Shown here: in pieces, positions 762 through 18,608 of the stretch
Layout: each line of letters starts with the position of its first letter
Numbering within the stretch: the first letter of the stretch is position 1
IMG/VR virus record: IMGVR_UViG_3300046323_000061
Location: 1-24,715 of that record
Reading direction: 5' to 3' (one strand)
Origin: a virus
Length of the DNA: 24,715 nucleotides
Notes under the pieces: model-generated
Told to the model about the DNA's origin: nothing
What the model saw: only the letters and a program-made list of their open reading frames with translations
The model's database searches: none
Translations under genes and position numbers: made by a program

Positions 762-3700
762 ATGCCACGTTACGAAGTCAATGCACCGGACGGGCAGCGT
801 TTTGAAGTTGATGCTCCAGAGGGGGCTACGCTTGAGGACGCTTTTGCCTATGTACAAAGTAATTTGTGGACACCTCTTGACGTCCAAGCAAAGAAGAAAC
901 GCACTTGGGGCGAAGCCGCTGGAGACATTGGTGGTAGTTTAACTAAAGGTGTTGGACAACTCGCACAACTGCCTGGGCAAGTAGCTGGATTAGTTACAGG
1001 TAATATTGACCCGGATACAGGGTTACAAGGTGTAGGAAAACAAATAGAACAGTTCGGAGAAGAACTTAAATCTCCTACTCTTAAAGCACGTCAAACATTA
1101 GCATCTCAAAAAATTGGTCAGGCAGACGGCTTACTAAATGAATTTGGTACCGCTATTAAAACGTATGCTACTGACCCAATGCTGGCTACCTCGTTTGTAG
1201 CTGAGCAATTACCTAACTTACTCGGTGCTGGTGCTGGCGGTGCTGCTACTAAAGTTGGTGTAAAAGCTGCAATGCGTGGGGCTACTAAAGAGGCTCTTGA
1301 AACTACCTTACCTAAAGCCGCAGTTCGTGGTGCAGTTGGTACAGGTGCTGTAATGCAAGGTGCTGATATTGGTACAGATACATTTGACTCTACGTTTAAA
1401 GGTCTTGTTGATGGTGGTATGTCGGCAATCGAAGCGTACCCAATCGCACTACAAAAAGGTCGTGTAGCCGCTATCGAAGCTGGTGGTCTTAGTGTGGCTA
1501 CTGCGTTCCTACCCGGTGGTACTGCTATTGAGCGTGCGCTAGTTGGTAAGGGTATGCCCGGTGCTGGTGGGTTCCTAAAAGGAGCTTTAGGCGAAGCACT
1601 ATCTGAAGGTATAGAAGAAGGTGGCGGAGCGTTTGCAAAGAACGTAGGTATGCAAGAAGCCTTGCCTGAAACAAGTTTAACTAAAGGTGTTGGTGCGGCA
1701 GCTGGACTTGGTGCATTAGGCGGTGCGTTATTTGGTGGTCCTGCAGGTGCTATTACAGGTATGCAAGACGCTGACAGAAATGCAGCTATTCAAGCAGTTA
1801 GAGACCAACACCAACAAGTTATCAATGCAGAAAATGAGGCAGCAGCAGCCGTAGATCAAGCACGTCGTGATGCCTATGCCGCCGAACAAGCTGCTACTGA
1901 AATGCGTATTATGCAGGAACGTCTTGGCGACCAATTTACACAGTCACAAGCATACGCAGACTTATCTGCACAAGTAGAAGCTGCACAGTTAAAAGCACAA
2001 GCTGCTGCCGACAAAATTCAAGCAGCACAAGCTAAAGTAGATGCTGGTAAAGCGCAGTTATCCGCCTTTGCTGAAGCTCAGCCTGATTTGTTTGGTATGG
2101 TATACCCTAAGATTCAAGAGCAAGCAGCCGCAGAACAACAAGCACGTGCAGAACAAGCGCAAGCTGGGCAAATGGAATTACCACTAGAAGCTCAAGCATC
2201 TTTAGGTTTGGAAGCTCCTGTACAGCCAGCTAGAATACCTGAAGCAGAACAAGAATTAGCTCCTGTGGGGCGCCTTGTTAATGAAGCTGATTTTAAGGCT
2301 ATGGGTGTAGGTAGTACTAATAAGAAGTTACGTGAACAGATTTTAGGTAAAGACTTAGCTGACCCTGCGCAAGCGCAAGAAGTCAAAGATATTTTAGAGA
2401 ACTACGCAAGTGGTGATCGTAGTGAACGGATTATCCAAGGTGTTACTAAGTTTATAGATGGAATTAAAACTCCTCAAGAACAATTAGGCTTGGGTTTACG
2501 CCGTCCATACGGTAGTATGAAGAAACCAGTTCCAGTAACTGAAACACCTATACAAGAGGAGGTAGCAAATGTTGGAGAACCTGTCGAAGCTATCCCCGGA
2601 ATTATTGAGCCAAGCATTCCAGAGCCTGTGGTCAGAAGAAGAGCTGCCCCTACCAAAGCAGTTGTTGAAGCTACAGGACGAGGAGTGGTTCCTACTGGGG
2701 GTATTGCTGGACTACCTGTTGGAAGAGAAGGAAATGTCCCTAGTGCATTAAGTGCGTATGACCAAGGCGCTATTGAAGGAGCAAAGCATAAAGATACTAA
2801 TAAATCAATTGGTGCAGTTCCTGAGCAAGGTTCCGAAGAAGCTAATAAGCAGTATGTAGAAGGCTATCTAGATGCTAAATGGGGCAAAATAAATAGAAAA
2901 ACTAAAGCAGAAACACCCGCACCTAAAGCTAAACCTAAGAAAGCCCCTGTTGCTGTTAATCCATTTGGACAATTAGTAGAAGCCGTTGCGCCTGAAAGCA
3001 AGCCTGACTTAACAGAAGACCAAGCCCGTGCAGTTATACCTGAGACGGCTGAGGAAACTCTTTCTCGGTTAGAAGTACCCCAAGAAACTAGCGCCGAAAC
3101 AGAAGAACTAATGCGTCAGTTGGGTATTCCTCCTAAGCTACAACGAGAAGGTACTCAAGGTGCAAGTAGTGAAAGTCTTACATCCGCAGTAGCTAAAGGT
3201 GACTTACGGAGTGCATTGGGTATTATTGCCCAAGATACATCAGGTACGTTTAACCCGTTAGAAGTTCAGATAGCTAAACGTTTACTAGCAAATAAAGGTT
3301 CACTGCCTAAGATTGAAGTTGTATCTAATTTAGATAGCTCAGGTTTATACAACCCGTTTACAGATACTATTCAGATCAAAGAAGGTGAAGTTGATTCGCA
3401 TACTGTATTGCATGAGGCTACACACGGTTTCTTACACGCTCTTATTGAGAAGTTTGAAAAAGACGGCATTAAGAATAAAGGTATTACAGACCTTAAAGGG
3501 GTCTATGACTTTATAGCTAAAGAACAGCCTAACCTAATGCAGACTTATGGTATGACTAGCCTGTCTGAGTTTGCTTCTGAAGTAATGTCTAACCGTGAGT
3601 TTCAAGCAGAGTTGGCACAGATTCCTTACCGCAGAGAGAACGCATTAACTGCGTTTATCAAGGCTGTACTAAATGCTTTAGGTATTTCTCCTAACGAGAA

Positions 3701-6401
3701 GTTTAGTGCTCTAGCTAGCGCATTAGTTGCAACCGACAGTGCAATGGCTATGGGGCGTAAAGTCCAAGAAGATGTTGTTACAGGCAAAGAAACACTACCT
3801 AAAGCTAGAGTTGAACGCTCTAACCTAGAAGATATTGACCGCCGTGCTGGTTATAGCAACGTTAAGCCTGACCCTAAGCAAGGGATCTTCAAGACTCTTA
3901 AAGGTACGGACAAAAAGCAGATTGAGTCTGGCACTAAGAACTTCCTAAACAAAGCTGAGACTATGTATTTCTCATCTGATGCTGCTTTGCAAAATGCAAT
4001 CCGTAAGGGTATGGAAGATAGTGGTATGAATTGGGAAGACCAAAAGCGTATGATGTTTATGAACGCTACTTCCCAAGCATTACATCCCGATGCAGTGGCT
4101 ATGCAGTTGTTGCAAGAAGGTGGAGTTGAGTATGAGAAAGATACTTACAAGTGGAAAGCCGTTAAGAAAGACGATAGCTGGCAATCTTTGATTAAAGACA
4201 TTAGCACTTTAGGTAAGAAGTATGGAGTTTCTACTGAGGAGATGAGTAACTATGCGCACCGTGCGTTTATCTCTGATCGTCTAAAAGGTTTGACTGGTAG
4301 TAAAGAAGATTTTTATAGTCACAAAACTCCTGAGCAAATTGCCGCTGGTATGGAATATTTTAAGGCTATCCCTGAGTTGCGTAAGCTACAAGAAAGCTGG
4401 AACAAAGTTCGTGCAAACGCTATGGATGCCGCAGTTGAGGGTGGGTTGTATTCTAGAAAGCAAGCGGACGAGTTGCTAGATATTATGGATTACGTGCCAT
4501 TCTTCCGTATGGAGCAGTTAGAAGCTAAACGAGGTCCAAAAGAGTATGGTCGTGGTTTACTAGACTTTGCCAAGGGTTATAAGATTCGTGGTAGTGAAGA
4601 TGAAGTTAATAATATCTTTGATAACATGGAACGTTGGGTTTCATATACCGTATCCCGTGCAGTTAAGAACCGTACTGCTTTGAACCTTTATGAAACTGCT
4701 AAAGAGTATTTACCTGAAGGTGAAGTTGTAGATTTACGTCAAGATGATACTACCCATAAAGAGCAGAATATTATTGACTTATGGGAAAACGGTCAGCGTA
4801 AGAAGGTAGAGTTTAAAGACCCATTATTCGTGCATGCGTTCCAAGGTGTAGAAGGTATATCCATACCGGTTTTTAAAAGTGCAGCTGCCGTTGCGAATAT
4901 CCTACGTAAGAACATTGTGTTGATGCCTTTGTTCTCGGTAAGTCAGTTGTCTCAAGATTCTATTGGTGCAATGTTTACATCGGGGCTACGCAACCCATTC
5001 TCTATTCCTATTGAAGTAGTTAAAGAATTTACTAAGACTTTACGTGGTACTAGCGCTACTCATGCTGAATTATCTAAGTATGGTGCAGTTGGTGTTCGTG
5101 ATTACTCTGCCGCTATTGCTCGTAATGATGCTGAGATTGTAGCTGGACTAGCCGCACCTACTAAGTTCCAAAAGATTCTGTCTCCGTTTGAGAAGTTTGC
5201 AATGGCTTCTGATAACGCAGTGCGTCAGGCTGTATATAACTTGACTATGAAAGAGACTAACGGGGATAAAGCGGCGGCTATTGAAAAGGCATTTGAGATT
5301 ATTAACTTTAAACGTTCTGGCGCTTCTGGTGGTGTGCAAGTTCTCAAACAAGTTGTACCGTTCTTTGGTGCGTACTTACAAGCTCAAAACGTAGCGTATA
5401 AAACTATTATGGGTAAGGGTATTTCCCCATCCCAAAAGAAAGAAGCACAGAGAGTATTGATGAGCACCTCCGCTAAGATTGCGGCGCTTGCTTTTATTTA
5501 TGCGGCAATTTGCGCAGATGATGATGACTATCAGAAGATGGATCCGACTATTCGTGACCGCCATTTGTTGATTCCGGGTACAGGCTTTATGTTGCCATTG
5601 CGACCTGACGTATTTATTCTTCCTAAGTTAGCGGCTGAGTATGCTTACCAAAGTATTACAGATCAAGGCTTTACAGATGGTAAGAAGATGCGTCGTGGTA
5701 TGTTTGATGCAGTGACTAATGCAATTCTTAGCCCAACTATTGTTCCTCAAGCTGTTAAACCATTAGCAGAAGTAATGGTGAACTACAACTTCTTTACAGG
5801 TCGCCCATTAGTAGGTATGGGTATAGAAAATAAAGTTACGGCTGAGCAATTTACTAATACAACTTCTGAACTAGCTAAGTTTTTAGGTAAGGCTGGTATT
5901 GTTGCCCCTGTGAACATTGACCATTTAATTAAAGGGTACTTAGGTACTACTGGTGGAATTGCATTACAGGCTACAAGTGCGGCGGCTAATATAGGTAGCA
6001 ACGTTCCTACACCTGAAAAGTCATTGCAAGATACCTTGGCTTCAACACCCGGCTTGTCGGCATTCTTTGTACGTGAGAACGGTGCGGCTTTGAAGAACGA
6101 TTACTATGAGTTACGTGGGGAAGTAGATAAGGCAGTAGCAACCTACAACAACATGGTTAAGACTGGTCGTGGAGAAGAAGCTAAAGAGTTCTTCGGGGAA
6201 AATAAAGAATTGTTTGCAGTTAAGAGCCAAGTAAACACTATTGAGCGTCAGCTAACTAAACTACGTGACAGAAGTAAAGTAATCTATGCGAGTACCAAAA
6301 TGTCTTCTGAAGAGAAGGGTGCGGAGTTAGACCGTATTAAGCAGATGGAAAACCGTATGCTGGCTAACATTAACGATATTCGTAGACGAGCAGGTTACTA
6401 A
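762..6401 (+). CDS. Giant polyvalent virion protein (LPD38-like), putative ejection protein with Zn-protease-like motif
   Basis: This is an 1879-residue protein. Residues 1-32 match the small N-terminal domain seen on many phage polyvalent proteins (MPRYEVNAPDGQ, then a Val-Asp-Ala-Pro-Glu-Gly turn). Residues about 140-335 are Gly/Ala-rich and hydrophobic. Residues 337-445 are an Ala/Gln/Glu coiled coil. Proline-rich linkers follow. HEATH at 884-888 with a downstream SEFASE glutamate segment resembles a gluzincin-type metallopeptidase site. Residues about 1290-1600 resemble LPD38 (large polyvalent protein domain 38), including PFFGAYLQAQN and a hydrophobic helix ending in DDDDYQ. The C-terminus is a charged coiled coil. 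Such proteins are thought to be packaged and injected with DNA. The ATG follows the upstream stop by 10 bases with no strong ribosome site, so translation may be coupled. Protease activity is an inference. Confidence 0.85.
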   Translation: MPRYEVNAPDGQRFEVDAPEGATLEDAFAYVQSNLWTPLDVQAKKKRTWGEAAGDIGGSLTKGVGQLAQLPGQVAGLVTGNIDPDTGLQGVGKQIEQFGEELKSPTLKARQTLASQKIGQADGLLNEFGTAIKTYATDPMLATSFVAEQLPNLLGAGAGGAATKVGVKAAMRGATKEALETTLPKAAVRGAVGTGAVMQGADIGTDTFDSTFKGLVDGGMSAIEAYPIALQKGRVAAIEAGGLSVATAFLPGGTAIERALVGKGMPGAGGFLKGALGEALSEGIEEGGGAFAKNVGMQEALPETSLTKGVGAAAGLGALGGALFGGPAGAITGMQDADRNAAIQAVRDQHQQVINAENEAAAAVDQARRDAYAAEQAATEMRIMQERLGDQFTQSQAYADLSAQVEAAQLKAQAAADKIQAAQAKVDAGKAQLSAFAEAQPDLFGMVYPKIQEQAAAEQQARAEQAQAGQMELPLEAQASLGLEAPVQPARIPEAEQELAPVGRLVNEADFKAMGVGSTNKKLREQILGKDLADPAQAQEVKDILENYASGDRSERIIQGVTKFIDGIKTPQEQLGLGLRRPYGSMKKPVPVTETPIQEEVANVGEPVEAIPGIIEPSIPEPVVRRRAAPTKAVVEATGRGVVPTGGIAGLPVGREGNVPSALSAYDQGAIEGAKHKDTNKSIGAVPEQGSEEANKQYVEGYLDAKWGKINRKTKAETPAPKAKPKKAPVAVNPFGQLVEAVAPESKPDLTEDQARAVIPETAEETLSRLEVPQETSAETEELMRQLGIPPKLQREGTQGASSESLTSAVAKGDLRSALGIIAQDTSGTFNPLEVQIAKRLLANKGSLPKIEVVSNLDSSGLYNPFTDTIQIKEGEVDSHTVLHEATHGFLHALIEKFEKDGIKNKGITDLKGVYDFIAKEQPNLMQTYGMTSLSEFASEVMSNREFQAELAQIPYRRENALTAFIKAVLNALGISPNEKFSALASALVATDSAMAMGRKVQEDVVTGKETLPKARVERSNLEDIDRRAGYSNVKPDPKQGIFKTLKGTDKKQIESGTKNFLNKAETMYFSSDAALQNAIRKGMEDSGMNWEDQKRMMFMNATSQALHPDAVAMQLLQEGGVEYEKDTYKWKAVKKDDSWQSLIKDISTLGKKYGVSTEEMSNYAHRAFISDRLKGLTGSKEDFYSHKTPEQIAAGMEYFKAIPELRKLQESWNKVRANAMDAAVEGGLYSRKQADELLDIMDYVPFFRMEQLEAKRGPKEYGRGLLDFAKGYKIRGSEDEVNNIFDNMERWVSYTVSRAVKNRTALNLYETAKEYLPEGEVVDLRQDDTTHKEQNIIDLWENGQRKKVEFKDPLFVHAFQGVEGISIPVFKSAAAVANILRKNIVLMPLFSVSQLSQDSIGAMFTSGLRNPFSIPIEVVKEFTKTLRGTSATHAELSKYGAVGVRDYSAAIARNDAEIVAGLAAPTKFQKILSPFEKFAMASDNAVRQAVYNLTMKETNGDKAAAIEKAFEIINFKRSGASGGVQVLKQVVPFFGAYLQAQNVAYKTIMGKGISPSQKKEAQRVLMSTSAKIAALAFIYAAICADDDDYQKMDPTIRDRHLLIPGTGFMLPLRPDVFILPKLAAEYAYQSITDQGFTDGKKMRRGMFDAVTNAILSPTIVPQAVKPLAEVMVNYNFFTGRPLVGMGIENKVTAEQFTNTTSELAKFLGKAGIVAPVNIDHLIKGYLGTTGGIALQATSAAANIGSNVPTPEKSLQDTLASTPGLSAFFVRENGAALKNDYYELRGEVDKAVATYNNMVKTGRGEEAKEFFGENKELFAVKSQVNTIERQLTKLRDRSKVIYASTKMSSEEKGAELDRIKQMENRMLANINDIRRRAGY

Positions 6402-6465: not shown

Positions 6466-6666
6466 TCACTTAAGCCTCCAAACACGCAAGCCATATTTGC
6501 CCTCCTCTACAACTTGTTTAATAACAACCTCAACACCAAGACGGTCTGCTTCTCTTTGCAGGGTCTTGGCATGGGCTTTCCTATCTAGGCACGGGATGAA
6601 AAACGACTGACCCGGCTCAAGCTTCTTCCAAGGTACCAATATCGTTAGATTCATTACCTTCAGCAT
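6466..6666 (-). CDS. Small unknown phage protein, 66 aa
   Basis: I do not recognise a named family. The protein is basic with a beta-alpha-beta look: a hydrophobic start, then PGQSFFIPCLDRK, an alpha helix rich in Lys/Arg (AHAKTLQREADRLG), then beta strands (VEVVIKQVV, GLRVWRL). The ATG at 6666 lies inside the end of the primase-helicase gene (overlap about 50 bases). It is supported by a ribosome site AGGAG 10 bases upstream, so it is probably translated together with that gene. It is the last gene before the leftward terminator. A role in nucleic-acid binding is only a guess from its charge. Confidence 0.7.
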   Translation of the reverse strand: MLKVMNLTILVPWKKLEPGQSFFIPCLDRKAHAKTLQREADRLGVEVVIKQVVEEGKYGLRVWRLK

Positions 6667-9472
6667 GGATTAGTTTCTCCTCTCTGAAGAATCCTAGTTT
6701 GGTTGTATCAAATACTAATGCAGGTGCATTTACATCGGTGTTAATAATAGTACCTGCTGTCATACGCTTACGCTTAATACCATGATAAGCCCCACTCTTG
6801 AGATGCACTGCCAAAGACTCATCAAAGTTTAACTGTACCTTAGCGCACTCAGCACGATACTCCTTAGCAACTACATATAAAAGCTTGGTATCAGGCTCAT
6901 AACGTGCAGTCAATGCGCCCCTTGGTTCACGAATCGGTCCAGTTTCAAGTCCTGTACGTCCGTCTTTCTTGCCGTTAATAACCAAAGTCTCATGGTACTT
7001 ACGTTGTAGAAACCCACCCAAGAAGTCGCTACTCTCAGCCATCATCATCTTATTTTGTAAGCGTGAGTCTCTGATGTGCTTGATAACGTAGGCTTGCACA
7101 GAACGATGGTCAATATCATGCAGGTTTAACTTCCTAGAAATGATGCCCCCAGTAATTGCAATAGCCGCCATAGCAGACCAATACCGTTCGTGGGATTTAA
7201 TATCAGCCTCAGCCTCAATCTTAGTTTGAATCTTTCCTAAGAACTCGATTACCTCGGGTAGATGCCCTACCACATACTGCATGAACGGATAGATAGCGTG
7301 CCCGTAGTTATCGTATAGACGGCTAAAGTGTTGTCTTGCCCATACAGGATCGTCGTTAGCATCGTTAAAGATGTGCAACTCCATAATACGCATTAACTCG
7401 CCTTCAGGGAAAGCCTTAATTGCTAGCAAGTCATCACGTAGTGAACGGTTAGAAGTCGTAATCATTCCTGTTGCCCAGCGTGTGATATTGATACGTTCAG
7501 CGTTCTCTTGGGACTTCATGCGGTTCTTAGCACGACCCTGCGTAATATCATAGGCAAGGTTAGATTTCTGCTCAGGAGGCATATTAGTCATCTCGTCTAG
7601 GAGAATTGGAATATGTTGGAAAGTACCAATCCGTTGCATCTTCTGATTGTATGTATCTTTAACTTGCATGAGCGTGTCTTTAGGATGCCCAAAAATACTA
7701 GATACTGCGTGTAGGATAGTCGTCTTACCTGAACCTGAACCTTGTGACTTCAAGCTAAGCATATAGCCTTCAAGATTAGTAAAGCGGAGTAGTACGTTAC
7801 CAAAGCCCATGAACAATGCAAAAGCCTTAGCTTCCATGTCAGGTCTACCATACGCATTAACTACATCTTTCCAAATATGGAAGTCACCCTTTTCCTTAAA
7901 CCAAGGAACTAGCGGTAGTGTTGCGGCGGTAGGTGGGCTGTATTTAATTTCATCCGCAGTAATCTCTTTATCACCTAGGATAAATGCACTGTCATCAGGC
8001 AACCAACCGAACTGTCTACGTGCAGTCTCAGCTTTAGTACTAGCCTGTAATTCTTCTACCCAACGTGTTATATAAGCCATAAGTAAGTCCTGTTTTTTGC
8101 CCAATACGGCTAAGCCATGCTGAGCGATTGTGTCTCTAAACCTGTCTTTTGCAAGCACTGCGGTTAGTGGAATGATGAACTCCTGTACCCCGTCTTTTGG
8201 TAAGTGCAAACGCATAAGCAATACTTCGCCTTGGTCAGGGTCACGCATACGCTTAACTACATAGAAGTCATAGGGGTAAATCATCTCTACCGATTCCGTA
8301 CCTTCTTCGTCTTTAAGCTTGGTGTAGATACCACCAGCCGCACCCCTAACAAATGGGAATGGGTACTTAGGAATCGTATATTGCACTGGGGCTTCGCCCT
8401 CTTCTTGTGATGGCTCAACTACTTCGTTGTCTTCCTCCGTAGCCTCGTTGAACTCCTTACCTAACTGAATAGGAGAAGTAAATGTATGTGGGCAACCTTC
8501 GCACAGGCTAGGGTTTAGCTTCTTGAATGTGGCGCAGGTATAAGGACCTTTTGTTTCATTAGCCTTACGATCTGTCTCAGATGCAGAATATCCGGGGTGT
8601 TTATTAGAGATTGCGTGAATGGCTTTATCCCTATCCACACACGCTTGGGCAATACTTAGCCCTCCTCTCCAAAGAGGCTCCTCTATTGTGCCTTGATTCT
8701 CATAGATATTCAATATTTGTGGACAGCCCGTACCCTCGGCACTCTTAATAAGAATCGTTTTAAATCGAGAGATGTTGTTGCCCATTAACGCTAGGGTCAT
8801 TGCATCCATCTGACGTGGGATAAACGGCTTACCCACCATGCCAGCAAATACGTCATCTTCTAATTTAAAAAGATCTTTGAATACATCGTTAGCTACCGGG
8901 TCCCCTTTGATGATTACTGTTACATGTAACGGGTCAGTAGGGTCTTTGTAGTTAAATGTCCCTGGAACTCGCAGTATACGTGCGGTATCCGCAGTAACGG
9001 ATGGGTCAGCCTCAAGCTTGTGGCGCTCGCAGAGGAGTTTAAATCCTTCAGCTAAGGGCTTCCATTCATCTCTAGGCATAGGCTCTTCTAGTACCCAGTA
9101 TGCGTGCACACCACGACCTGAATTAACCACCATAGGCTTAGGTAGTTTGGCATCTTTAATGAACTGCTTGAGTGCAGTCATTCCTTCGGCTTGGTCAGCA
9201 TAGGGTTTACCCATACCACAATCAATGTCGATAAAGAAAGACTTAAAGAACTCGGCGTTCTTGGATGTTCTACCCTCTTTAGGGTCTGCAAAGGAAGCTA
9301 GTGCAAAGTACGCATTGTATTCATCTTTAACTAAACTACTGGCAAGTTGCTCTACTTCTTCGATAGAACCAACAAATTTTTGTCTTGGACTTGCATTGTC
9401 TTTTAATCCCACCACACAGTACGCTCCGTTTGGAGGAAGCACTGCCGATAGAAATTCATTTGTTATTAACAT
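6617..9472 (-). CDS. Primase-helicase fusion (AEP-type primase + DUF927-type ATPase)
   Basis: A 951-residue, two-domain replication protein. The N-terminal half carries archaeo-eukaryotic primase signatures: FFIDIDCG with Asp82 and Asp84 (metal binding), SGRGVH at 118-123, and a DTARILRVPGTFN segment near 162-174. A Cys/His cluster near residue 310-335 (CATFKK, then CEGCPH) is likely a zinc site. The C-terminal half looks like a DUF927-type helicase: Walker A GSGSGKTT at 578-585 (Lys583) and Walker B ILLDEM with Asp626/Glu627, followed by a TTSN sensor-like segment. It probably primes and unwinds DNA at the phage fork. Start ATG at 9472 has AAGGCGG upstream. The genes upstream are HTH and ssDNA-binding-like, and the family A polymerase lies further along, which makes a self-sufficient replisome. 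Confidence 0.9.
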   Translation of the reverse strand: MLITNEFLSAVLPPNGAYCVVGLKDNASPRQKFVGSIEEVEQLASSLVKDEYNAYFALASFADPKEGRTSKNAEFFKSFFIDIDCGMGKPYADQAEGMTALKQFIKDAKLPKPMVVNSGRGVHAYWVLEEPMPRDEWKPLAEGFKLLCERHKLEADPSVTADTARILRVPGTFNYKDPTDPLHVTVIIKGDPVANDVFKDLFKLEDDVFAGMVGKPFIPRQMDAMTLALMGNNISRFKTILIKSAEGTGCPQILNIYENQGTIEEPLWRGGLSIAQACVDRDKAIHAISNKHPGYSASETDRKANETKGPYTCATFKKLNPSLCEGCPHTFTSPIQLGKEFNEATEEDNEVVEPSQEEGEAPVQYTIPKYPFPFVRGAAGGIYTKLKDEEGTESVEMIYPYDFYVVKRMRDPDQGEVLLMRLHLPKDGVQEFIIPLTAVLAKDRFRDTIAQHGLAVLGKKQDLLMAYITRWVEELQASTKAETARRQFGWLPDDSAFILGDKEITADEIKYSPPTAATLPLVPWFKEKGDFHIWKDVVNAYGRPDMEAKAFALFMGFGNVLLRFTNLEGYMLSLKSQGSGSGKTTILHAVSSIFGHPKDTLMQVKDTYNQKMQRIGTFQHIPILLDEMTNMPPEQKSNLAYDITQGRAKNRMKSQENAERINITRWATGMITTSNRSLRDDLLAIKAFPEGELMRIMELHIFNDANDDPVWARQHFSRLYDNYGHAIYPFMQYVVGHLPEVIEFLGKIQTKIEAEADIKSHERYWSAMAAIAITGGIISRKLNLHDIDHRSVQAYVIKHIRDSRLQNKMMMAESSDFLGGFLQRKYHETLVINGKKDGRTGLETGPIREPRGALTARYEPDTKLLYVVAKEYRAECAKVQLNFDESLAVHLKSGAYHGIKRKRMTAGTIINTDVNAPALVFDTTKLGFFREEKLIHAEGNESNDIGTLEEA

Positions 9473-9802: not shown

Positions 9803-10693
9803 TTAAGCCTCGTCATCCCAGTCAGATAGAATCTTGCCTAAATCTTTCTTAGGTGCTGGCTCTTCCTTCTTGGATGCACGTTTGGTTGGCTCTGCTGGCT
9901 CTTCTTCGGCTGGCGCTTGTGCTTTAGCTTTTGGGGCTTCAGCAGGGGCAGGGGCTTCTAGTTTAGGCGCATCAGTTTTCTCAGCCGCTACGGTCATCGT
10001 AATTGCTTTGATAGCTTCAGGACTCTTACCTTGCTCAATCGCAGTACCAATTTCATTAGACTCCAAGAAACGTACAGGCTTGAATGTAATCTTAGGTGTA
10101 GAGCTAGCAGTATCAAAACGCATCTCAGTAACCACTGCGGTAATAGGGCAACCCTTAGCACCGATCATCTTAGCGTACATCTGCAAAGGCCATTTACCTG
10201 ATTCACCTTCACCGAAGATTGATGTAGAAGGAAGCACTAATTGGAATACATCACCACCAATATCGTTATCCAAGACTACTGCAATACGTTGGCTGAATCG
10301 GCAAGCACGACCATCACCTTGACCTGAACCTTTTACGTTCTGTGGGCAAGTAGCACAAGACTTAGATTGCGGATGCTTTGCACTAGCGTCAGGGTAGTCA
10401 CCATTTGGAGACCAGCAATCAGGTGTAGATGTAACACCCTTCTTATAAACACCTTCATAGTATGTACGAGATACCTTTGAAGAAGCCGCAACAATAACAA
10501 CATTTAAGTTACGTTCTTCTTTCTGTGCAATCTCTTTACCATTTACTAGCAAGCGCCATACACCACCCTCGATAGAAATACGCTTAGAACCTCCACCACC
10601 ACTACCCATAAGGGCTTTAGTAGTATCGTCCAATTCCATTGTTTTAAGATGGGCTGGTAAACCAATGTCCAACATAGCTAAATCATTACTCAT
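9803..10693 (-). CDS. Putative single-stranded DNA-binding protein with Cys4 cluster and acidic tail
   Basis: The longest frame starts at 10705, but its first codons contain GGAGAAG, an ideal ribosome site for the ATG at 10693 (MSNDLAML), so I start there (296 aa). The core is beta-rich. It carries four cysteines (C93, C113, C116, C131 from this start), spaced as a likely zinc knuckle. The last third is a disordered Ala/Pro/Glu/Lys tail ending in KILSDWDDEA. Acidic tips of this sort recruit replication partners in SSB and T7 gp2.5 proteins. It lies between a conserved coiled-coil protein and the HTH and primase-helicase genes. An ssDNA-binding function fits but is inferred from architecture and neighbours, as no OB-fold can be proved by eye. 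Confidence 0.6.
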   Translation of the reverse strand: MSNDLAMLDIGLPAHLKTMELDDTTKALMGSGGGGSKRISIEGGVWRLLVNGKEIAQKEERNLNVVIVAASSKVSRTYYEGVYKKGVTSTPDCWSPNGDYPDASAKHPQSKSCATCPQNVKGSGQGDGRACRFSQRIAVVLDNDIGGDVFQLVLPSTSIFGEGESGKWPLQMYAKMIGAKGCPITAVVTEMRFDTASSTPKITFKPVRFLESNEIGTAIEQGKSPEAIKAITMTVAAEKTDAPKLEAPAPAEAPKAKAQAPAEEEPAEPTKRASKKEEPAPKKDLGKILSDWDDEA

Positions 10694-10704
10694 TTTCTTC
10701 TCCA

Positions 10705-11085
10705 TTATTTACGACGAATGACAGCCGTGTATCGGCTATCTACTTGTAACCCCGGCGGTACTGCATCCGGGTTTTCTTCAAGAAACGTTGCCATGTTTGC
10801 TTGTGCTACTCTTTTTTCTAGCAACTCAATAGCATTATGCTCCTTAACGAAATCATAGAACGAACTCCAATCGCTCGTCCAAAACCTTTTCTTAACTGAT
10901 CTAGTAACTGTACCGAATTCAGTACGCAAGCCATCTGCACCTGTTTCTTTGCAAATGTTTAATAGCTCAGCTTCGATTACACCTTGTTGCTCTTCTAATT
11001 CACTATCTTGCTTAGATAGCTCTGCTCGTTTTTCACGAATCTTTAGATATATTTTTACCAACTTGTTTGCTGTTGTTTCACTCAT
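10705..11085 (-). CDS. Conserved coiled-coil phage protein, possibly Gam-like, 126 aa
   Basis: First gene after the 11.1 kb promoter, with an AAGGAG ribosome site before ATG at 11085. Residues 1-45 form a Lys/Glu/Gln coiled coil. The C-terminal domain holds GTVTRSVKKRFWTSDW and a conserved-looking ENPDAVPPG segment that ends in a short beta strand (YTAVIRRK). A coiled coil followed by a small alpha/beta domain resembles the host-nuclease inhibitor Gam, and similar genes lie beside phage replication genes. I cannot confirm homology. Its stop overlaps the first possible start of the next gene by one base, so the two are probably co-translated. Confidence 0.75.
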   Translation of the reverse strand: MSETTANKLVKIYLKIREKRAELSKQDSELEEQQGVIEAELLNICKETGADGLRTEFGTVTRSVKKRFWTSDWSSFYDFVKEHNAIELLEKRVAQANMATFLEENPDAVPPGLQVDSRYTAVIRRK

Positions 11086-11109: not shown

Positions 11110-11138
11110 AATTTAGTACCATACTTATACAATGTCAA
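11110..11138 (-). promoter_or_regulatory. Sigma70-type promoter for the replication operon
   Basis: On the minus strand, TTGACA (11138-11133, a perfect -35) is followed after exactly 17 bases by TAAATT (11115-11110, 4 of 6 to TATAAT). It points at the 126-residue gene, whose ATG lies 25 bases downstream of the -10. It sits in one of the few gaps in the leftward block, and its -35 overlaps the stop codon of the SNF2 helicase gene. Host RNA polymerase would therefore read the replication operon directly. Confidence 0.65.
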
Positions 11139-12685
11139 GGGGTTTCATCTAAAATATTTTTATACAGGTCTATCATTTTAGTATGAATATCAACTTTTCC
11201 CTGCAACATCTTGTACATTCTTTTTTCTACTGGGGACCCTTCTAGATGCACGACTGTACAGGGGTTGTGTTGTCCTGCTCGGTGTACCCTAGCATTAGCC
11301 TGAAGATATGTTTCAACTGACGTAATAGGGGAAAACCATACTACAACATTCGCCGCAGTTAGAGTAACACCATGCGATGCCGCCTGTGGCTGGATAACTA
11401 AAACCTTTGGCGAGTCTGATGTTTGAAAGCGGTTAAAAATGTCTGTGCGATTGCTAACTGATACTGCACCGTTAATAATTTCTGCATCATAACCACACTT
11501 GTTTAGTTCTTCTGTGATGATGTGTATAGCATGGGTATATGGCACAAACACTAGTACTTTATGTGAGGCTTCATCAATAACTTCTTTGAGGGCAGAGATG
11601 CGGTTGCTTGCATCAAACTCTACAACTTCTCCACTATCCGAATAGACTGCACCACATGACAACTGCAATAGTTTGTTAAGGTTAGCCGCCGCATTTACTG
11701 TGGTAATTTCTTCTCCTGCCGCATGAGCCAGCATATTCTTACGGATGATCTCGTAGTATTTAGTTTGTTGTGCGGTAAGTGGTACATCCCTAGTAGAGTA
11801 GGTCATCTCAGGTAAGTCTAGGCAGTCCTCTTTACTGAAACGTATTGCAGGCTGTAGCACATCAAATACTGTCTGTTCTGATGACTTCTTTGGAACCCAC
11901 TTAAACTGTGTAATCTTTTGCATCACTTGGTCACGGAATGAACCATAAAATCTAGGCACTCCTGCTGGATTAACTAACTTAGCCAAGCCATACGCATCGG
12001 TAGGAGATTGGGAAGCTGGTGTACCTGTAAGCATCCATAACCATGAAGTAGGTTTGATAATTGAGTTAAGTAACTTCCAGCGGGTAGTAGATACAGTCTT
12101 ATATGCGTTTGCTTCGTCTACTACAATCAGGTCAAAATCACCGTTAATTACGGCATCTTTAATAATCCCTAGCCCGTCAAAGTTACAGATAACAAACTCG
12201 GAATCTGCGTTTACTGCATCAATACGCTTCTCTCGGGAATAGCTATGGGCTATCGTACAAGTCCTGTGCATGGCAAATCTAAACAAATCGTTCTGCCAAG
12301 CGGATTGCATAATGGACAATGGGCACAATACTAAAACACGTTTTATAATACCTAGCTTAAGTAAGTAGTCAGCCGCCCAAATTACCGATCCGGTTTTTCC
12401 AGTACCCTGCTCATTAAAACAGAACGCTCGGCGGTGCAGAGTTAGGAATTCAGCAGTAGTACGCTGGTGGTCAAACGGTTTATATAGTCCGGGCCAATCA
12501 TATTGCGAACGAATTGGTGAGGGTACATCTTTAATCTTTAGGTTCTTAAGTACCTGAGCTTCTTCCAGCCCCCATTTAACTAGCACCTCACCTGTATCGA
12601 GAATCTTGCTCTTTGGGATAACCGTAGTGATACGTCCCGGGTCACGCACTTTCAATAGCAGTGCTTTGTTGTCTATGATTTCCAT
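11135..12685 (-). CDS. SNF2/SF2 family DNA helicase or translocase
   Basis: A 516-residue protein with the full superfamily 2 motif set. It has a Q-like FDHQ near 71-74, Walker A NEQGTGKT at 91-98 (Lys97), motif II DEAN at 190-193 in place of the usual DEAH/DEGH, motif III LTGTP at 219-223, and motif VI QANARVHRAGQ near residue 465-475. It lacks extra DNA-recognition domains, as small phage SNF2 proteins do. It probably translocates on double-stranded DNA during replication, recombination or repair. The start overlaps the stop of the upstream small gene by 13 bases and has no clear ribosome site, so coupling is likely. The Cas4-like nuclease lies about 1 kb upstream in the same transcript, a plausible functional partner. 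Confidence 0.9.
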   Translation of the reverse strand: MEIIDNKALLLKVRDPGRITTVIPKSKILDTGEVLVKWGLEEAQVLKNLKIKDVPSPIRSQYDWPGLYKPFDHQRTTAEFLTLHRRAFCFNEQGTGKTGSVIWAADYLLKLGIIKRVLVLCPLSIMQSAWQNDLFRFAMHRTCTIAHSYSREKRIDAVNADSEFVICNFDGLGIIKDAVINGDFDLIVVDEANAYKTVSTTRWKLLNSIIKPTSWLWMLTGTPASQSPTDAYGLAKLVNPAGVPRFYGSFRDQVMQKITQFKWVPKKSSEQTVFDVLQPAIRFSKEDCLDLPEMTYSTRDVPLTAQQTKYYEIIRKNMLAHAAGEEITTVNAAANLNKLLQLSCGAVYSDSGEVVEFDASNRISALKEVIDEASHKVLVFVPYTHAIHIITEELNKCGYDAEIINGAVSVSNRTDIFNRFQTSDSPKVLVIQPQAASHGVTLTAANVVVWFSPITSVETYLQANARVHRAGQHNPCTVVHLEGSPVEKRMYKMLQGKVDIHTKMIDLYKNILDETP

Positions 12686-13464: not shown

Positions 13465-14133
13465 TTAGTGGTTCTTTCCATTGTGTTCGCAGTCGGTTAT
13501 TGAACACCATGCTCGGCATGAAAAGTTAGGCTTCTTATTCCATACGCTATTCTCGATAGCCGATTCAAGCCGTTGGGTATCTTCCAACCACTTAGTCCAA
13601 TAAACCCCTTCATTATCCTGCACATAGTTAGCTTTAATCAAGTCCTTTACGACCACGAATAGTAAGCCCCCTTTGACTCTTTTGATCTCAGGGAAGTGCT
13701 TAAACAGGGCTAGGGATAGGAGTTCTAACTGCTGGGTGTCTGCATACTTACTAGACTTACCCGTCTTATAATCAATTACATAGGCACTATCACCCTTGAG
13801 GATGATTAGGTCTGCTACTCCTCGCCACCAAACATCCTTATCAAAGAATCCACATGGCTCTAGGTTGGCTGTCAGTCCTAGTCGGTACTCACATAGCTTC
13901 TCCCCTTCTATCTTATTAAGGCTATCTAACTGCTCCTTAATATACATATACTTCTCAGGGATTGGTGTTCCCTTACCGATGTAATCTTCTGCGGCTTTAT
14001 GTACTTCCAGTCCGTAGTTCAAATGCTCGGTAGGGGGTTCTACAATATCTTTTACAACACGTAGCCTGTAATACTTATGTGGGCATTGTTTGAAAAGACT
14101 CAGCGATGAGTACGACCAAGTATATTTAGGCAC
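13465..14133 (-). CDS. PD-(D/E)XK nuclease, Cas4/RecB-like with four-cysteine cluster
   Basis: A 222-residue protein. It starts with the Cas4/PDDEXK_1 opening YSSLSLFKQCPHKYY (Cys17). It has a GLEVH motif (His45), GVADLI (Asp108), VIDYKTGK (Asp121, Lys123) and Gln134, the full nuclease core. The C-terminus carries Cys206, Cys210 and Cys215, which together with Cys17 give the one-plus-three pattern of Cas4/AddB proteins that hold an iron-sulfur cluster. It is likely a DNA exonuclease for end resection or host DNA breakdown. Start is GTG at 14133 with GGGGA upstream. No CRISPR array or cas1/cas2 is present. Its neighbours are the polymerase upstream and the HNH-like gene and helicase downstream. 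Confidence 0.88.
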   Translation of the reverse strand: MPKYTWSYSSLSLFKQCPHKYYRLRVVKDIVEPPTEHLNYGLEVHKAAEDYIGKGTPIPEKYMYIKEQLDSLNKIEGEKLCEYRLGLTANLEPCGFFDKDVWWRGVADLIILKGDSAYVIDYKTGKSSKYADTQQLELLSLALFKHFPEIKRVKGGLLFVVVKDLIKANYVQDNEGVYWTKWLEDTQRLESAIENSVWNKKPNFSCRAWCSITDCEHNGKNH

Positions 14134-14308
14134 TAAGTTCCCCTGTTATATGGGTAAGTAATCGAACGTCTACAAAGGCATTCATCATGTGCTCATGCCC
14201 CTCTTTAAAATGCCTACCATTCATAGCAATCTCAAACTTCTTTAGGTGCTCTCTAGTGCGTATCAATAGGTCTGCGTAATCAAATACTTCTTCTTTAACA
14301 ATCGCCAT
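14126..14308 (-). CDS. Small helical unknown protein, 60 aa
   Basis: A TTG-start frame is slightly longer, but ATG at 14308 (MAIVKEEVFD) has GGAGAGAG just upstream, so I use it. The protein is wholly helical: an acidic N-terminus, a basic middle (RTREHLKKFEIAMNGRHFKEG) and a conserved-looking MNAFVDVRLLTHI. It lacks recognisable motifs. It overlaps the polymerase end by 14 bases and the nuclease start by 8 bases, so it is part of the same translated block. Confidence 0.65.
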   Translation of the reverse strand: MAIVKEEVFDYADLLIRTREHLKKFEIAMNGRHFKEGHEHMMNAFVDVRLLTHITGELSA

Positions 14309-16124
14309 AACTCTCTCCAATTCCTGATTCGCAACTTAACGGCAAGGTCTTAGCCCAATCGGGTCTCCAACTCATGCACTCTTCAATAAAGGCTTGTGCT
14401 TCTTTAGCTTCTTCTTTTGGCACAATACAAGCCACCGCATCATGTACGGTTAATACAGACTTATACCGCTTGTTCATCTTAAGCATCTGCTCAGCAATAA
14501 CACAACGGGCTAGTGCTTGACATAAGTTCTCAACTACTTTACCACCATATATTTTAACAGAACCACGACGAGTTTTATACTCATACTGCTCATTACCTTC
14601 AGGGTCAGTTACTTTAGCTAAACTTTCATAGCGTTGCCATAGCCCACTAGGTAGTAGAAACCCTTTCTTAGAAGCATCAAAAGTTACTACACCTTCTCGT
14701 CCTAAATCGCAAGCATTACCCGATACGATTGCATCTAAGCATCGTCCAGCAGACCTCCATAGCGTTGGGATTTTCGCATAAGTCTTTCTGTAAACGTCGA
14801 TAATATGTTGAGCTTCCCCCTCCGTAATTTCCATACCGAAAGTCTTGAGCTGGATCCCGAATTTCTTAGCCCCCATGCCATAGCCAGCCCCAAGAATTGT
14901 CGTCTTTCCCACGAACCTTTCCTCGGCTGTAATCTCTGACACATCCTTTTCGTAGATAGCCGAAGCCATGATCTTGTAAACATCCTCGCCATTATTAAAT
15001 GCCTCCACTAAGTCATCTTGCCCAGCCAGCCAAGCAACAATCCGTGCCTCAATCTGAGCCGAATCACAGTCAATCATTACATACCCATCAGGAGCACAGA
15101 TAGCTTTCTTTAACTTGCCACCGTTCTGCCCACGACTAGGTAGGTTTTGTAGGTTAATCTTATCATCGCCACCCCATCGCCCTGTATGAGCCGCATAGTA
15201 TTTGATAGGTACAGGTAGCTTTCCACGCTTAGCAATATCAATAAAGCGTTGTGTCCGCGTCTCTTCTAACGTAGACTTGTTGCCCAACCGAGCCGCAACC
15301 AAAGCCTGAACACGTACGTCAGGGTGAGAGATTAGTTCTTTAAGCCCTTCATCAGTCTTGGCAAATGCAAACGTCTCCTTGCCTGTCGTTAGTGAAGTCT
15401 TCATTGGAGGTACAACCCCCAGGGAGGTAAGTAGTTCTGCAAACTTGTTGTTAGACATTAGCGTATCTTTGTCAGCCATGCACGCTTCCATTAGACGTTC
15501 TTTCTTGCGCTTAACATCTTCTAGGTGTTGCTCCAGTAGGGGTAGGTTTAGCACTAAGCTAGGTTCTGTAAACATCTTCAGGGTTACATCAATAACCTTG
15601 AGTTCCTGCTGAGGGAAACCATCCTCAATGAAGATATTAAACAACTTCCAAGTTAAGTCCACGTCGTTCTTGCAGTATTCACCATAGCGATGTAGTTCAT
15701 CAGGTAGAAAGTCTATACGTCTTTGACCCAACGCTTGTAGGACTTCCGTGCCTTTCTCGCCGATTTTGTAACGCTCTGCCAAGACCTTAAGACTACCGCC
15801 CGCCTCAACTCCATGAATCGCACGTGCCATACACAAAGTGTCCAACCAGCCTTTCGGGTGAACCCCATAAAGCCACGAGAGTATTGCCCCATCAAATTGG
15901 GTGTTGTGTGCGAGGACGAGTGAGTTCTTCCAATCGTAGGCTTGTAGTGCTTCCTTAATTTCTTTAAATGTTCCTGTAATCCATGTTGTTTCATTGTCGT
16001 TCTCCTTGACTGCTATACCAATTACTTCAAAGCGATCATCACGCACATACTCCTCGGTGGTCATCTTAGATAGGCTAAATGCTTTGTCGTAATAAGTCTC
16101 AAAGTCAATCGTTAATATTTGCAT
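14295..16124 (-). CDS. Family A DNA polymerase with 3'-5' exonuclease, Leu762 type
   Basis: A 609-residue phage DNA polymerase. Exonuclease motifs: DFET (Asp7, Glu9), LAHNTQFD (Asn74, Asp78), YCKND (Tyr150, Asp154). Polymerase motifs: TGRW at 314-317; motif A D-S-A-Q-I-E-A-R with Asp354, Glu359 and Arg361 (Ser-Ala replacing the usual Tyr-Ser); motif B Arg403, Lys407, Leu411, Tyr415-Gly416; motif C HDA at 561-563. Aligning motif B with E. coli Pol I places Leu411 at Phe762. There is no 5'-nuclease domain, as in T7 gp5-like enzymes. Start ATG at 16124 overlaps the upstream gene by 20 bases; a GGAAG lies 13 bases upstream. It should replicate the phage genome together with the primase-helicase. 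Confidence 0.95.
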   Translation of the reverse strand: MQILTIDFETYYDKAFSLSKMTTEEYVRDDRFEVIGIAVKENDNETTWITGTFKEIKEALQAYDWKNSLVLAHNTQFDGAILSWLYGVHPKGWLDTLCMARAIHGVEAGGSLKVLAERYKIGEKGTEVLQALGQRRIDFLPDELHRYGEYCKNDVDLTWKLFNIFIEDGFPQQELKVIDVTLKMFTEPSLVLNLPLLEQHLEDVKRKKERLMEACMADKDTLMSNNKFAELLTSLGVVPPMKTSLTTGKETFAFAKTDEGLKELISHPDVRVQALVAARLGNKSTLEETRTQRFIDIAKRGKLPVPIKYYAAHTGRWGGDDKINLQNLPSRGQNGGKLKKAICAPDGYVMIDCDSAQIEARIVAWLAGQDDLVEAFNNGEDVYKIMASAIYEKDVSEITAEERFVGKTTILGAGYGMGAKKFGIQLKTFGMEITEGEAQHIIDVYRKTYAKIPTLWRSAGRCLDAIVSGNACDLGREGVVTFDASKKGFLLPSGLWQRYESLAKVTDPEGNEQYEYKTRRGSVKIYGGKVVENLCQALARCVIAEQMLKMNKRYKSVLTVHDAVACIVPKEEAKEAQAFIEECMSWRPDWAKTLPLSCESGIGESYGDC

Positions 16125-18103: not shown

Positions 18104-18279
18104 TTGCCCTCCCAGTAACGACGGCTTTCTTCAGCATCTTTACGGCATTTCTCTTGATACCTACCAATGCTCTGTGCCACTTTCAACCCAACAATAATCC
18201 AGTAGGCAGTCCACCACCAATTATCGGCATTGGATTCATACAAAAAGTAACCTACAAATAACGCTAACATCTCCATCAT
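18100..18279 (-). CDS. Small one-helix membrane protein, 59 aa
   Basis: Read directly from the gap between two larger genes. It starts MMEMLALFVGYFLYE, then has a short polar turn (SNADN) and an aromatic hydrophobic run (WWWTAYWIIVGLKVAQ). A charged tail with Cys and Arg/Glu follows (RYQEKCRKDAEESRRYW). The layout suggests a membrane anchor with a cytoplasmic coiled tail. AAAAGGAGAAG lies before the start, and ATGA overlaps join it to the VRR-NUC gene upstream and the zinc-ribbon gene downstream. It could be a host-takeover or superinfection protein; neither is shown. Confidence 0.65.
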   Translation of the reverse strand: MMEMLALFVGYFLYESNADNWWWTAYWIIVGLKVAQSIGRYQEKCRKDAEESRRYWEGK

Positions 18280-18608
18280 TCTTCTCCTTTTAGGAAATCA
18301 AACAGGACTCCAGCATCGGGAAACCCTGCATCTAATAACACCTTTAACGAACCTATCCCTGTTTCATCAACAAGTATTGAGATACCCCCGACGTTAATAA
18401 TGTCCATCAAGTTCTTCTCTTGTAGTGCTGTTGGCTTACCGCCGTTTGCCTTGCACTCGATACCAATGAACCGCCCTTTGATACAAGCCACAAGATCAGG
18501 CACACCTGACTTACCATACCCACCCGTTGCTGGCATGAAGTAGTAAGCCCCGTGTTCCGTTAATAACTTCTTAACTTTGTCTTTAACTTTCTTTTCGGGG
18601 GTAGTCAT
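18276..18608 (-). CDS. VRR-NUC family nuclease
   Basis: A 110-residue stand-alone VRR-NUC (PD-(D/E)XK) protein. It has Gly-x-Pro-Asp at GVPDL (Asp38), then IECKANGGKPT with Glu51 and Lys53, and Gln63 in ALQ. These give the metal-binding Asp, Glu and Lys of the family. Phage stand-alone members are thought to resolve or nick branched DNA, like Holliday junction resolvases. The length is usual for the type. ATG at 18608 directly follows the stop of the HTH gene. It is linked to the membrane-protein gene by ATGA overlap. Confidence 0.88.
   Translation of the reverse strand: MTTPEKKVKDKVKKLLTEHGAYYFMPATGGYGKSGVPDLVACIKGRFIGIECKANGGKPTALQEKNLMDIINVGGISILVDETGIGSLKVLLDAGFPDAGVLFDFLKGEE

What the first reader, a model, noticed from the sequence alone, without database searches (positions are those of the whole stretch)
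14295..16124. Family A polymerase with Leu at the Phe762 position
Motif B reads R-F-V-G-K-T-T-I-L, which places Leu411 where E. coli Pol I has Phe762 and T7 has Tyr. In viral metagenome studies Leu762 polymerases form a distinct group, proposed to be slower, more accurate and linked to temperate or slow-lytic phages. No integrase or repressor is visible here, so lifestyle is open. Motif A also has Ser-Ala in place of Tyr-Ser.
Basis: partly seen in the sequence, partly recalled or inferred. Interest (0 to 1): 0.6.

Follow-up and report, generated by a model that had tools for sequence, protein, structure and literature searches.

The report
Phage polymerase with swapped nucleotide pocket
A phage DNA-copying enzyme really does carry leucine where most relatives carry an aromatic residue, and every such enzyme examined also has tyrosine in place of a nearby nucleotide-binding histidine, so the leucine looks like half of a paired swap rather than a sign that the phage is dormant or slow.

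Summary
The gene is on the minus strand (16124..14295, 609 aa), and Leu411 aligns with E. coli Phe762; motif A reads D-S-A-Q-I-E-A-R. The enzyme belongs to the known Leu762 group, next to a conserved PD-(D/E)XK nuclease, SNF2 helicase and a PrimPol fused to an MCM-like (DUF927) helicase.

The lifestyle inference is not supported for this clade. Tyrosine and large serine integrases: 0 of 50 relatives examined, against 32 of 50 in a second Leu762 clade. Cultured relatives (KPP25, RHph_TM3_14A, Rollin) lack both. Two Phe/Tyr762 phages have integrases.

New here: Leu762 was never seen without Tyr at E. coli position 734, where Phe/Tyr762 enzymes have the His that holds the dNTP triphosphate (T7 His506). 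In 211 sequences: L/Y 128, F/H 66, Y/H 15, I/Y 1, H/H 1. Five Leu762 polymerases outside the main clade keep both. Published single changes of either residue alone are harmful (T7 Y526L; Pol gamma H932Y). I propose a two-residue pocket swap. Independent origins are not shown (AU test p about 0.6), so shared ancestry remains a live rival.

The parts
14295..16124 (-). Family A DNA polymerase, 609 aa, 3'-5' exonuclease plus polymerase domains, no 5' nuclease domain
   Evidence: PF00476 139.7 bits (cut-off 34.3), PF01612 26 bits (cut-off 23.6); phrog_17 1.3e-95; AlphaFold2 pLDDT 91.2, Z 29.2 to Bacillus Pol I, 531 residues, rmsd 3.5
14892..14894 (-). Codon of Leu411 = E. coli 762 / T7 526
14976..14978 (-). 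Codon of Tyr383 = E. coli 734 / T7 His506 (His in every Phe/Tyr762 polymerase examined)
14871..14918 (-). Motif B RFVGKTTILGAGYGMG
15042..15065 (-). Motif A DSAQIEAR (Asp354 = catalytic Asp705, Glu359 = steric gate Glu710)
14427..14447 (-). Motif C VHDAVAC (Asp562 = Asp882; Glu883 position is Ala)
13465..14133 (-). PD-(D/E)XK (Cas4/RecB-like) nuclease next to the polymerase
   Evidence: PF12705 8.6e-14; present in 70 of 71 clade loci with 1 kb downstream sequence
11135..12685 (-). SNF2-family helicase
   Evidence: PF00176 1.2e-20 and PF00271; 55 of 55 clade loci with 4.5 kb downstream
10705..11085 (-). 126-aa Mu Gam/Gp157-like protein
   Evidence: PF22709 below cut-off; phrog_13900; 51 of 52 clade loci
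9803..10705 (-). 300-aa protein, acidic tail and Cys pairs; candidate single-strand binding protein (inference from sequence)
   Evidence: phrog_27714, unknown function; 41 of 43 clade loci
6617..9472 (-). 951-aa PrimPol (AEP) fused to DUF927 MCM-like helicase
   Evidence: PF06048 8.6e-27; model pLDDT 85.5; residues 367-935 match SCCmec Cch helicase Z 30.6 (490 aligned, rmsd 8.3), residues 1-203 match cyanophage S-2L PrimPol Z 19.1 (175 aligned, rmsd 2.6); 30 of 31 clade loci

Best explanation
The gene encodes the replicative family A polymerase of a phage from the Leu762 group (the part that contains KPP25, RHph_TM3_14A and Rollin), working with a PrimPol fused to an MCM-like helicase, an SNF2 helicase and a PD-(D/E)XK nuclease. 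Leu762 is one half of a coupled change in the dNTP pocket: Phe/Tyr762 with His734 on one side, Leu762 with Tyr734 on the other. Proposed mechanism: in the common form the aromatic 762 packs on the incoming nucleotide (and Tyr762 touches the beta-phosphate) while His734 binds the triphosphate; in the Leu form Tyr734, near the start of the model's helix 382-391, supplies ring and hydroxyl from the other side and Leu762 makes room. Shown here: the residues, their complete co-occurrence in all sequences examined, the gene neighbourhood, absence of integrase genes in the clade records searched. From papers: the single changes are harmful in T7 pol and Pol gamma. Inferred: that Tyr734 compensates for Leu762, and the geometry. 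Nothing here measures speed or fidelity.
For: 762/734 pairs: 179 sequences L/Y 118, F/H 44, Y/H 15, I/Y 1, H/H 1; 208: 125/66/15/1/1; 211: 128/66/15/1/1; all 505 copies fetched, not dereplicated: L/Y 271, Y/H 161, F/H 70, I/Y 1, H/H 1, gap/H 1. No L/H and no F/Y or Y/Y. Of 18 polymerase-domain columns that separate the main Leu clade (123 rows) from Phe/Tyr762 (81 rows), BC611 and Trine share exactly two with the Leu clade: 762 and 734; Oline, LP-110 and G21-7 are also L762/Y734 while their 711, 757, 765, 845 and 846 are not Leu-clade-like. T7 His506 and Taq His639 bind the dNTP triphosphate (PMC5984650, PMC7155079, PMC10487964, passages). T7 Y526L alone: 97% loss of activity, no viable phage, authors call for unknown compensatory residues (PMC13228545, passages). 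Pol gamma H932Y alone: about 200-fold weaker dNTP affinity (PMC4362329, passage).
Against: One origin of all Leu762 polymerases is not rejected (AU p 0.603; 0.596; the held tree even scores 5.5 log units higher), so the pair may be inherited from one ancestor and co-occurrence then proves no interaction. 734 and 762 are both active-site positions, each nearly invariant within a group. Sixteen other columns also separate the main clade. No coordinates were available, so the contact between Tyr734, Leu762 and dNTP was not measured. The identity of Pol gamma His932 with E. coli His734 is recalled, not aligned here. The apparent separate origins rest on quick trees with long branches.
Confidence: 0.6

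Rival explanations
1. Leu762 and Tyr734 are two of many changes fixed in one ancient Leu762 ancestor; they persist because active-site residues change rarely, without depending on each other.
For: AU tests do not reject one origin; 18 columns, not 2, distinguish the main clade.
Against: In BC611 and Trine the other 16 columns are not Leu-clade-like, yet both 762 and 734 are, and their relatives agree at the columns read; each change alone is harmful in tested enzymes; the one I762 sequence also has Tyr734 (L097).
Confidence: 0.3
2. One reading: Leu762 marks a slower, more accurate polymerase of a temperate or slow-lytic phage.
For: Literature summary in Nasko 2018 (PMC6302109, passages); a second Leu762 clade does carry integrases in 32 of 50 records; a related polymerase sits in an IMG/VR provirus of Vreelandella beside a CI-like gene.
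Against: 0 of 50 for PF00589, PF07508 and PF00717 in this clade; cultured relatives without integrase; reported lytic growth of CRPAP1904; integrases in F762 and Y762 phages; virulent B. elkanii phages with Leu762 (PMC12632393, passages).
Confidence: 0.07
3. The polymerase is degenerate or an accessory repair enzyme.
For: Motif C Glu883 is Ala or Ser in all 81 clade members.
Against: Asp705, Lys758, Tyr766, Asp882 and the DEDD exonuclease residues are conserved in the clade; Ala/Ser883 also occurs in other phage polymerases such as VpV262 and Quartz; conserved replication neighbourhood.
Confidence: 0.03

Closest known systems
Pol A of Rhizobium phage RHph_TM3_14A (MN988472), KPP25/Kochitakasuvirus, Pseudomonas phage Rollin
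   Same: Leu762, Tyr734, Gly757, same general layout; RHph shares the whole module down to the PrimPol-helicase
   Different: only 32-36% protein identity; Rollin keeps Leu711; KPP25 and RHph keep Glu883
Leu762 Group I viral PolA of Nasko et al. 2018
   Same: Leu762, RecB-like nuclease and SNF2 neighbours
   Different: that paper links Leu762 to non-ring helicases; here a PrimPol-MCM-like helicase is also in the module; not placed in their tree (no sequences held)
T7 gp5 / E. coli Pol I Klenow
   Same: family A fold and catalytic residues; Z 29.2 to Bacillus Pol I
   Different: Phe/Tyr762 with His734
SCCmec Cch and SaPIBov1 Rep (DUF927 helicases)
   Same: fold of residues 367-935 of the neighbouring protein (Z 30.6 and 26.4); Cch described as containing DUF927 and MCM-like (PMC7581432, passages)
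   Different: here fused to an AEP primase domain

Membership tests
Family A DNA polymerase | PF00476 above curated cut-off and catalytic residues D705, K758, D882 | tested here: met
   139.7 bits vs 34.3; aligned
Family A DNA polymerase | Fold of Pol I Klenow | tested here: met
   Z 29.2, 531 aligned, rmsd 3.5 to 3ht3
Proofreading 3'-5' exonuclease (DEDD) | PF01612 and residues D7, E9, D78, D154 | tested here: met
   26 bits vs 23.6; invariant in 81 of 81; activity not tested
Leu762 viral PolA group | Leu at E. coli 762 | tested here: met
Leu762 viral PolA group | SNF2 and RecB-like neighbours (Group I) | tested here: met
   definition from PMC6302109 passages
Leu762 viral PolA group | no ribonucleotide reductase | tested here: inconclusive
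   none among the 10 window proteins scanned, but the window is a fragment
Leu762 viral PolA group | only non-ring helicases | tested here: inconclusive
   a DUF927 MCM-like helicase is in the module, but ring assembly of this protein was not tested
Temperate phage | integrase gene | tested here: inconclusive
   none in the 24.7-kb window; 0 of 50 relatives for PF00589 and PF07508; the genome is incomplete
Temperate phage | CI/LexA-type repressor (PF00717) | tested here: inconclusive
   none in window, 0 of 50 relatives; other repressor types not searched
T7-like (Tyr762) polymerase | Tyr at 762 with His734 | tested here: not met

The most novel reading that the evidence does not exclude
Family A polymerases have two natural dNTP pockets: aromatic-762/His734 and aliphatic-762/Tyr734. 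The two residues depend on each other, so neither half works well alone; that explains why Leu762 clades rarely revert and why single Leu mutants of T7 fail, and it removes the basis for reading Leu762 as a slow-polymerase or lysogeny marker. The single I762 polymerase (L097) with Tyr734 suggests that the rule is aliphatic, not leucine alone.
Probability: 0.55. Interest if true: 0.75.

Novelty: new member of a known kind. Interest (0 to 1): 0.6.

Why it matters
Residue 762 is used to predict phage lifestyle from metagenomes. A 2026 preprint says that compensatory residues in Leu762 polymerases must exist and that looking for them is a key next step (PMC13228545, passages). Position 734 is a specific candidate that a simple double-mutant cycle in a laboratory enzyme can test, and the clade contrast (0 of 50 against 32 of 50 with integrases) warns against using Leu762 alone as a lysogeny marker. 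It would also give a natural counterpart to the Pol gamma H932Y disease mutation.

Tried and rejected
Position 711 Ala, 757 Gly, 765 Gly, 845 Glu and 846 Asn looked like partners of Leu762 at first, but the Leu762 polymerases outside the main clade lack them, so only 734 was kept. Glu883 to Ala/Ser was dropped as a Leu-linked feature because Phe762 phages show it too. The 'putative integrase' annotated in RHph_TM3_14A was rejected as evidence of lysogeny: it is 25% identical over 897 aa to the window's primase-helicase. The genome-contig hits L088-L092 are short MAG contigs or pieces and were not used as evidence of integration. A vRNAP-like hit of the polyvalent protein (phrog_2206, 1.8e-16) was not followed. 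Independent origins of L762/Y734 were tested and not established (the third AU test did not finish and was not repeated). The independent-pairs test on supported branches had one pair only, so no statistic. Two viral scans gave little: the VpV262 query 5 loci, the phiM5 query none. Schmidt 2014 and Batabyal 2010 are not held; what they report is cited only through other papers.

Rows dropped: 3 of 10 MAG loci gave no polymerase of 400 aa or more, and L098 was not tried; phi12-like relatives collapsed at 80% identity; L497 (insert) and L509 (fragment) left out of trees; one search left out 20 rows to thin the tree, among them the long branches L097, phiAsp2 and VpV262. Sequences added after the 80% dereplication were not dereplicated: the cellular and extra phage rows, the rows and 3. 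In the second Leu762 clade and in the window clade 50 of 80 records each were searched, the longer ones by choice. That second set is rich in proviruses of isolates; among its metagenome records of 30 kb or more 14 of 23 have an integrase, against 0 of 13 in the window clade.

A claim that the 762/734 pairing is not in print rests and on word searches inside PMC13228545, PMC9069017 and PMC6302109; subscription papers are mostly not held.

Full report
What is in the window. The record is an IMG/VR virus fragment of 24,715 bases. The named interval holds a 609-aa ORF on the minus strand. It is a family A polymerase with a DEDD 3'-5' exonuclease domain, predicted with mean pLDDT 91.2 and matching Bacillus Pol I over 531 residues (Z 29.2, rmsd 3.5).

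The residue. Leu411 is E. coli 762. The register is fixed by Lys758, Asp705 and Asp882, aligned in 179 of 179 sequences, by E. coli numbering of the column and by an independent phmmer alignment to Klenow. It is Leu in the query and 80 of 80 close relatives. Motif A is D-S-[SA]-Q-I-E-A-R, with Ser at 706 in 81 of 81.

Neighbourhood. Downstream on the same strand lie a PD-(D/E)XK nuclease, an SNF2 helicase, a small Gam/Gp157-like protein, a 300-aa protein and a 951-aa protein. Relatives of these are found in 70 of 71, 55 of 55, 51 of 52, 41 of 43 and 30 of 31 clade loci with enough downstream sequence. The 951-aa protein is modelled at pLDDT 85.5: its N-terminus matches the cyanophage S-2L PrimPol (Z 19.1, 175 aligned, rmsd 2.6) and residues 367-935 match the SCCmec Cch helicase (Z 30.6, 490 aligned, rmsd 8.3) and SaPIBov1 Rep (Z 26.4). 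Cch contains DUF927 and resembles MCM (PMC7581432, passages); DUF927 was predicted as a helicase fused to primases (PMC5862659, passages). Nasko et al. describe Leu762 modules as having non-ring helicases (PMC6302109, passages); this module has an MCM-like one, though ring assembly was not tested.

Nearest cultured relatives are RHph_TM3_14A (36%), KPP25 and its kin (35-36%) and Rollin (32%), with Leu762 in the three whose sequence was read. The RHph gene called 'putative integrase' is the primase-helicase homologue (25% over 897 aa), and no PF00589 is found in that record.

Lifestyle. PF00589 was found in 0 of 50 clade records (50 searched of 80 found) and in 0 of 3 of KPP25, RHph and Rollin; PF07508 in 0 of 54 records, namely the 50, the window and those three; PF00717 in 0 of those 54, while the two added controls, phi12 and the Vreelandella provirus, rang, the latter below cut-off. 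Positive control: phi12 and 16 phi12-like records gave PF00589 in 9 of 17; 10 T7-like gave 0. In a broader second Leu762 clade PF00589 was in 12 of 50 (11 over cut-off) and PF07508 in 24 of 50 (the 51st record, the Vreelandella provirus, had none), together 32 of 50. Restricted to metagenome records of 30 kb or more it is 14 of 23 against 0 of 13 (Fisher p 0.00025). Among named phages searched for both families, L762: 1 of 12 (phiM5); phi12, searched for PF00589 only, also has one; F or Y762: 2 of 14 (Twister F762, HTVC131P Y762). So Leu762 alone does not predict an integrase; the clade does. Limits: most records are fragments, and absence of integrase is not proof of a virulent life. A related polymerase (35%) sits in a Vreelandella chromosome next to a CI-like gene, in a region IMG/VR holds as a separate 52-kb virus record, with no tyrosine or serine integrase in that record, so the wider lineage may include temperate members.

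The coupled residue. Comparing 118 Leu762 with 59 Phe/Tyr762 sequences, two columns separated the groups completely with one letter or letter pair on each side: 762 itself and 734. Leu762 enzymes have Tyr734, Phe/Tyr762 enzymes have His734. Counts: 179 sequences L/Y 118, F/H 44, Y/H 15, I/Y 1, H/H 1; 208 sequences 125, 66, 15, 1, 1; 211 sequences 128, 66, 15, 1, 1; all 505 fetched copies 271 L/Y, 161 Y/H, 70 F/H, one I/Y, one H/H and one gap/H. The T7 residue is His506 (numbering checked). Papers describe His506 (T7) and His639 (Taq) as triphosphate-binding (PMC5984650, PMC7155079, PMC10487964; passages).

Is it more than ancestry? In the polymerase domain 18 columns distinguish 123 main-clade Leu762 rows from 81 Phe/Tyr762 rows. 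BC611 (Enterococcus) and Trine (Gordonia), which also have Leu762, share with the main clade only 762 and 734 of the 18. Oline (Mycobacterium), LP-110 (Listeria) and G21-7 do likewise at the columns read. In trees the main Leu clade is supported (SH-aLRT 97, 100) and these fall in two further places among Phe/Tyr762 rows, three changes for each residue. But the AU test does not reject a single Leu origin (p 0.603; 0.596), so I do not claim several origins. With one origin the statement is weaker: of the 18 features these two alone have stayed together.

Published single changes fit dependence. T7 Y526L lost 97% of activity and gave no phage (PMC13228545, passages), and the authors say that compensatory residues must exist; the text has no mention of histidine or H506. 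Pol gamma H932Y, which I recall to be the same position as 734, lowers dNTP affinity about 200-fold, and the change makes yeast lose its mitochondrial genome (PMC4362329, passages). Natural Leu762 polymerases were active in 5 of 8 cases tested (PMC9069017, passages).

Mechanism. Most likely Tyr734 provides an aromatic ring and hydroxyl towards the incoming nucleotide in place of the lost aromatic 762 and His734. This is inference: the models gave no coordinates to measure, and among the 60 solved sequences listed none is named as a Leu762 phage enzyme. Speed and fidelity of the window enzyme are unknown.

Verdict. Observation confirmed; group membership known; lifestyle reading not supported for this clade; the 734 partner is the new and testable point.

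Noticed in passing
L081:30610-33693 (MN988472.1 42239-45322): Gene annotated 'putative integrase' in Rhizobium phage RHph_TM3_14A is a homologue of the window's PrimPol-DUF927 protein; likely misannotation that could mislead lifestyle calls.
   Followed up: yes
   Followed up: no
window 14427-14447: Glu883 of motif C (HDE) is Ala or Ser in all 81 clade members; also lost in some Phe762 phage polymerases.
   Followed up: partly
L093; G078: Vreelandella massiliensis chromosome carries a provirus-like region (52-kb IMG/VR record) with a Leu762 polymerase, SNF2 and a CI-like HTH/S24 gene but no PF00589 or PF07508; its way of integration is unexplained.
   Followed up: partly
window 762-6401 (+): 1879-aa large polyvalent protein with LPD38 and a HEATH motif; also a phrog_2206 (virion RNA polymerase) hit over residues 116-537.
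   Followed up: no
G035 (L453-L456): 65,090-b relative whose polyvalent-protein ORF seems split over the two record ends, which suggests a circularly permuted, near-complete genome of about 65 kb.
   Followed up: partly
L264 and L262 (HTVC131P, Twister): Y762 and F762 phages with a tyrosine and a serine integrase, against the rule that Tyr/Phe762 means virulent.
   Followed up: yes
window 18276-18608 (-): Relative of the RHph_TM3_14A gene annotated VRR-NUC endonuclease (41% identity by tblastn).
   Followed up: no
L461 (phiAsp2) and L097: Two polymerases with neither Leu nor Phe/Tyr at 762: His762 with His734, and Ile762 with Tyr734.
   Followed up: partly
window 10705-11085 (-): PHROG family named 'minor head protein' sits inside the replication module and is conserved there; the family name is probably wrong.
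   Followed up: no
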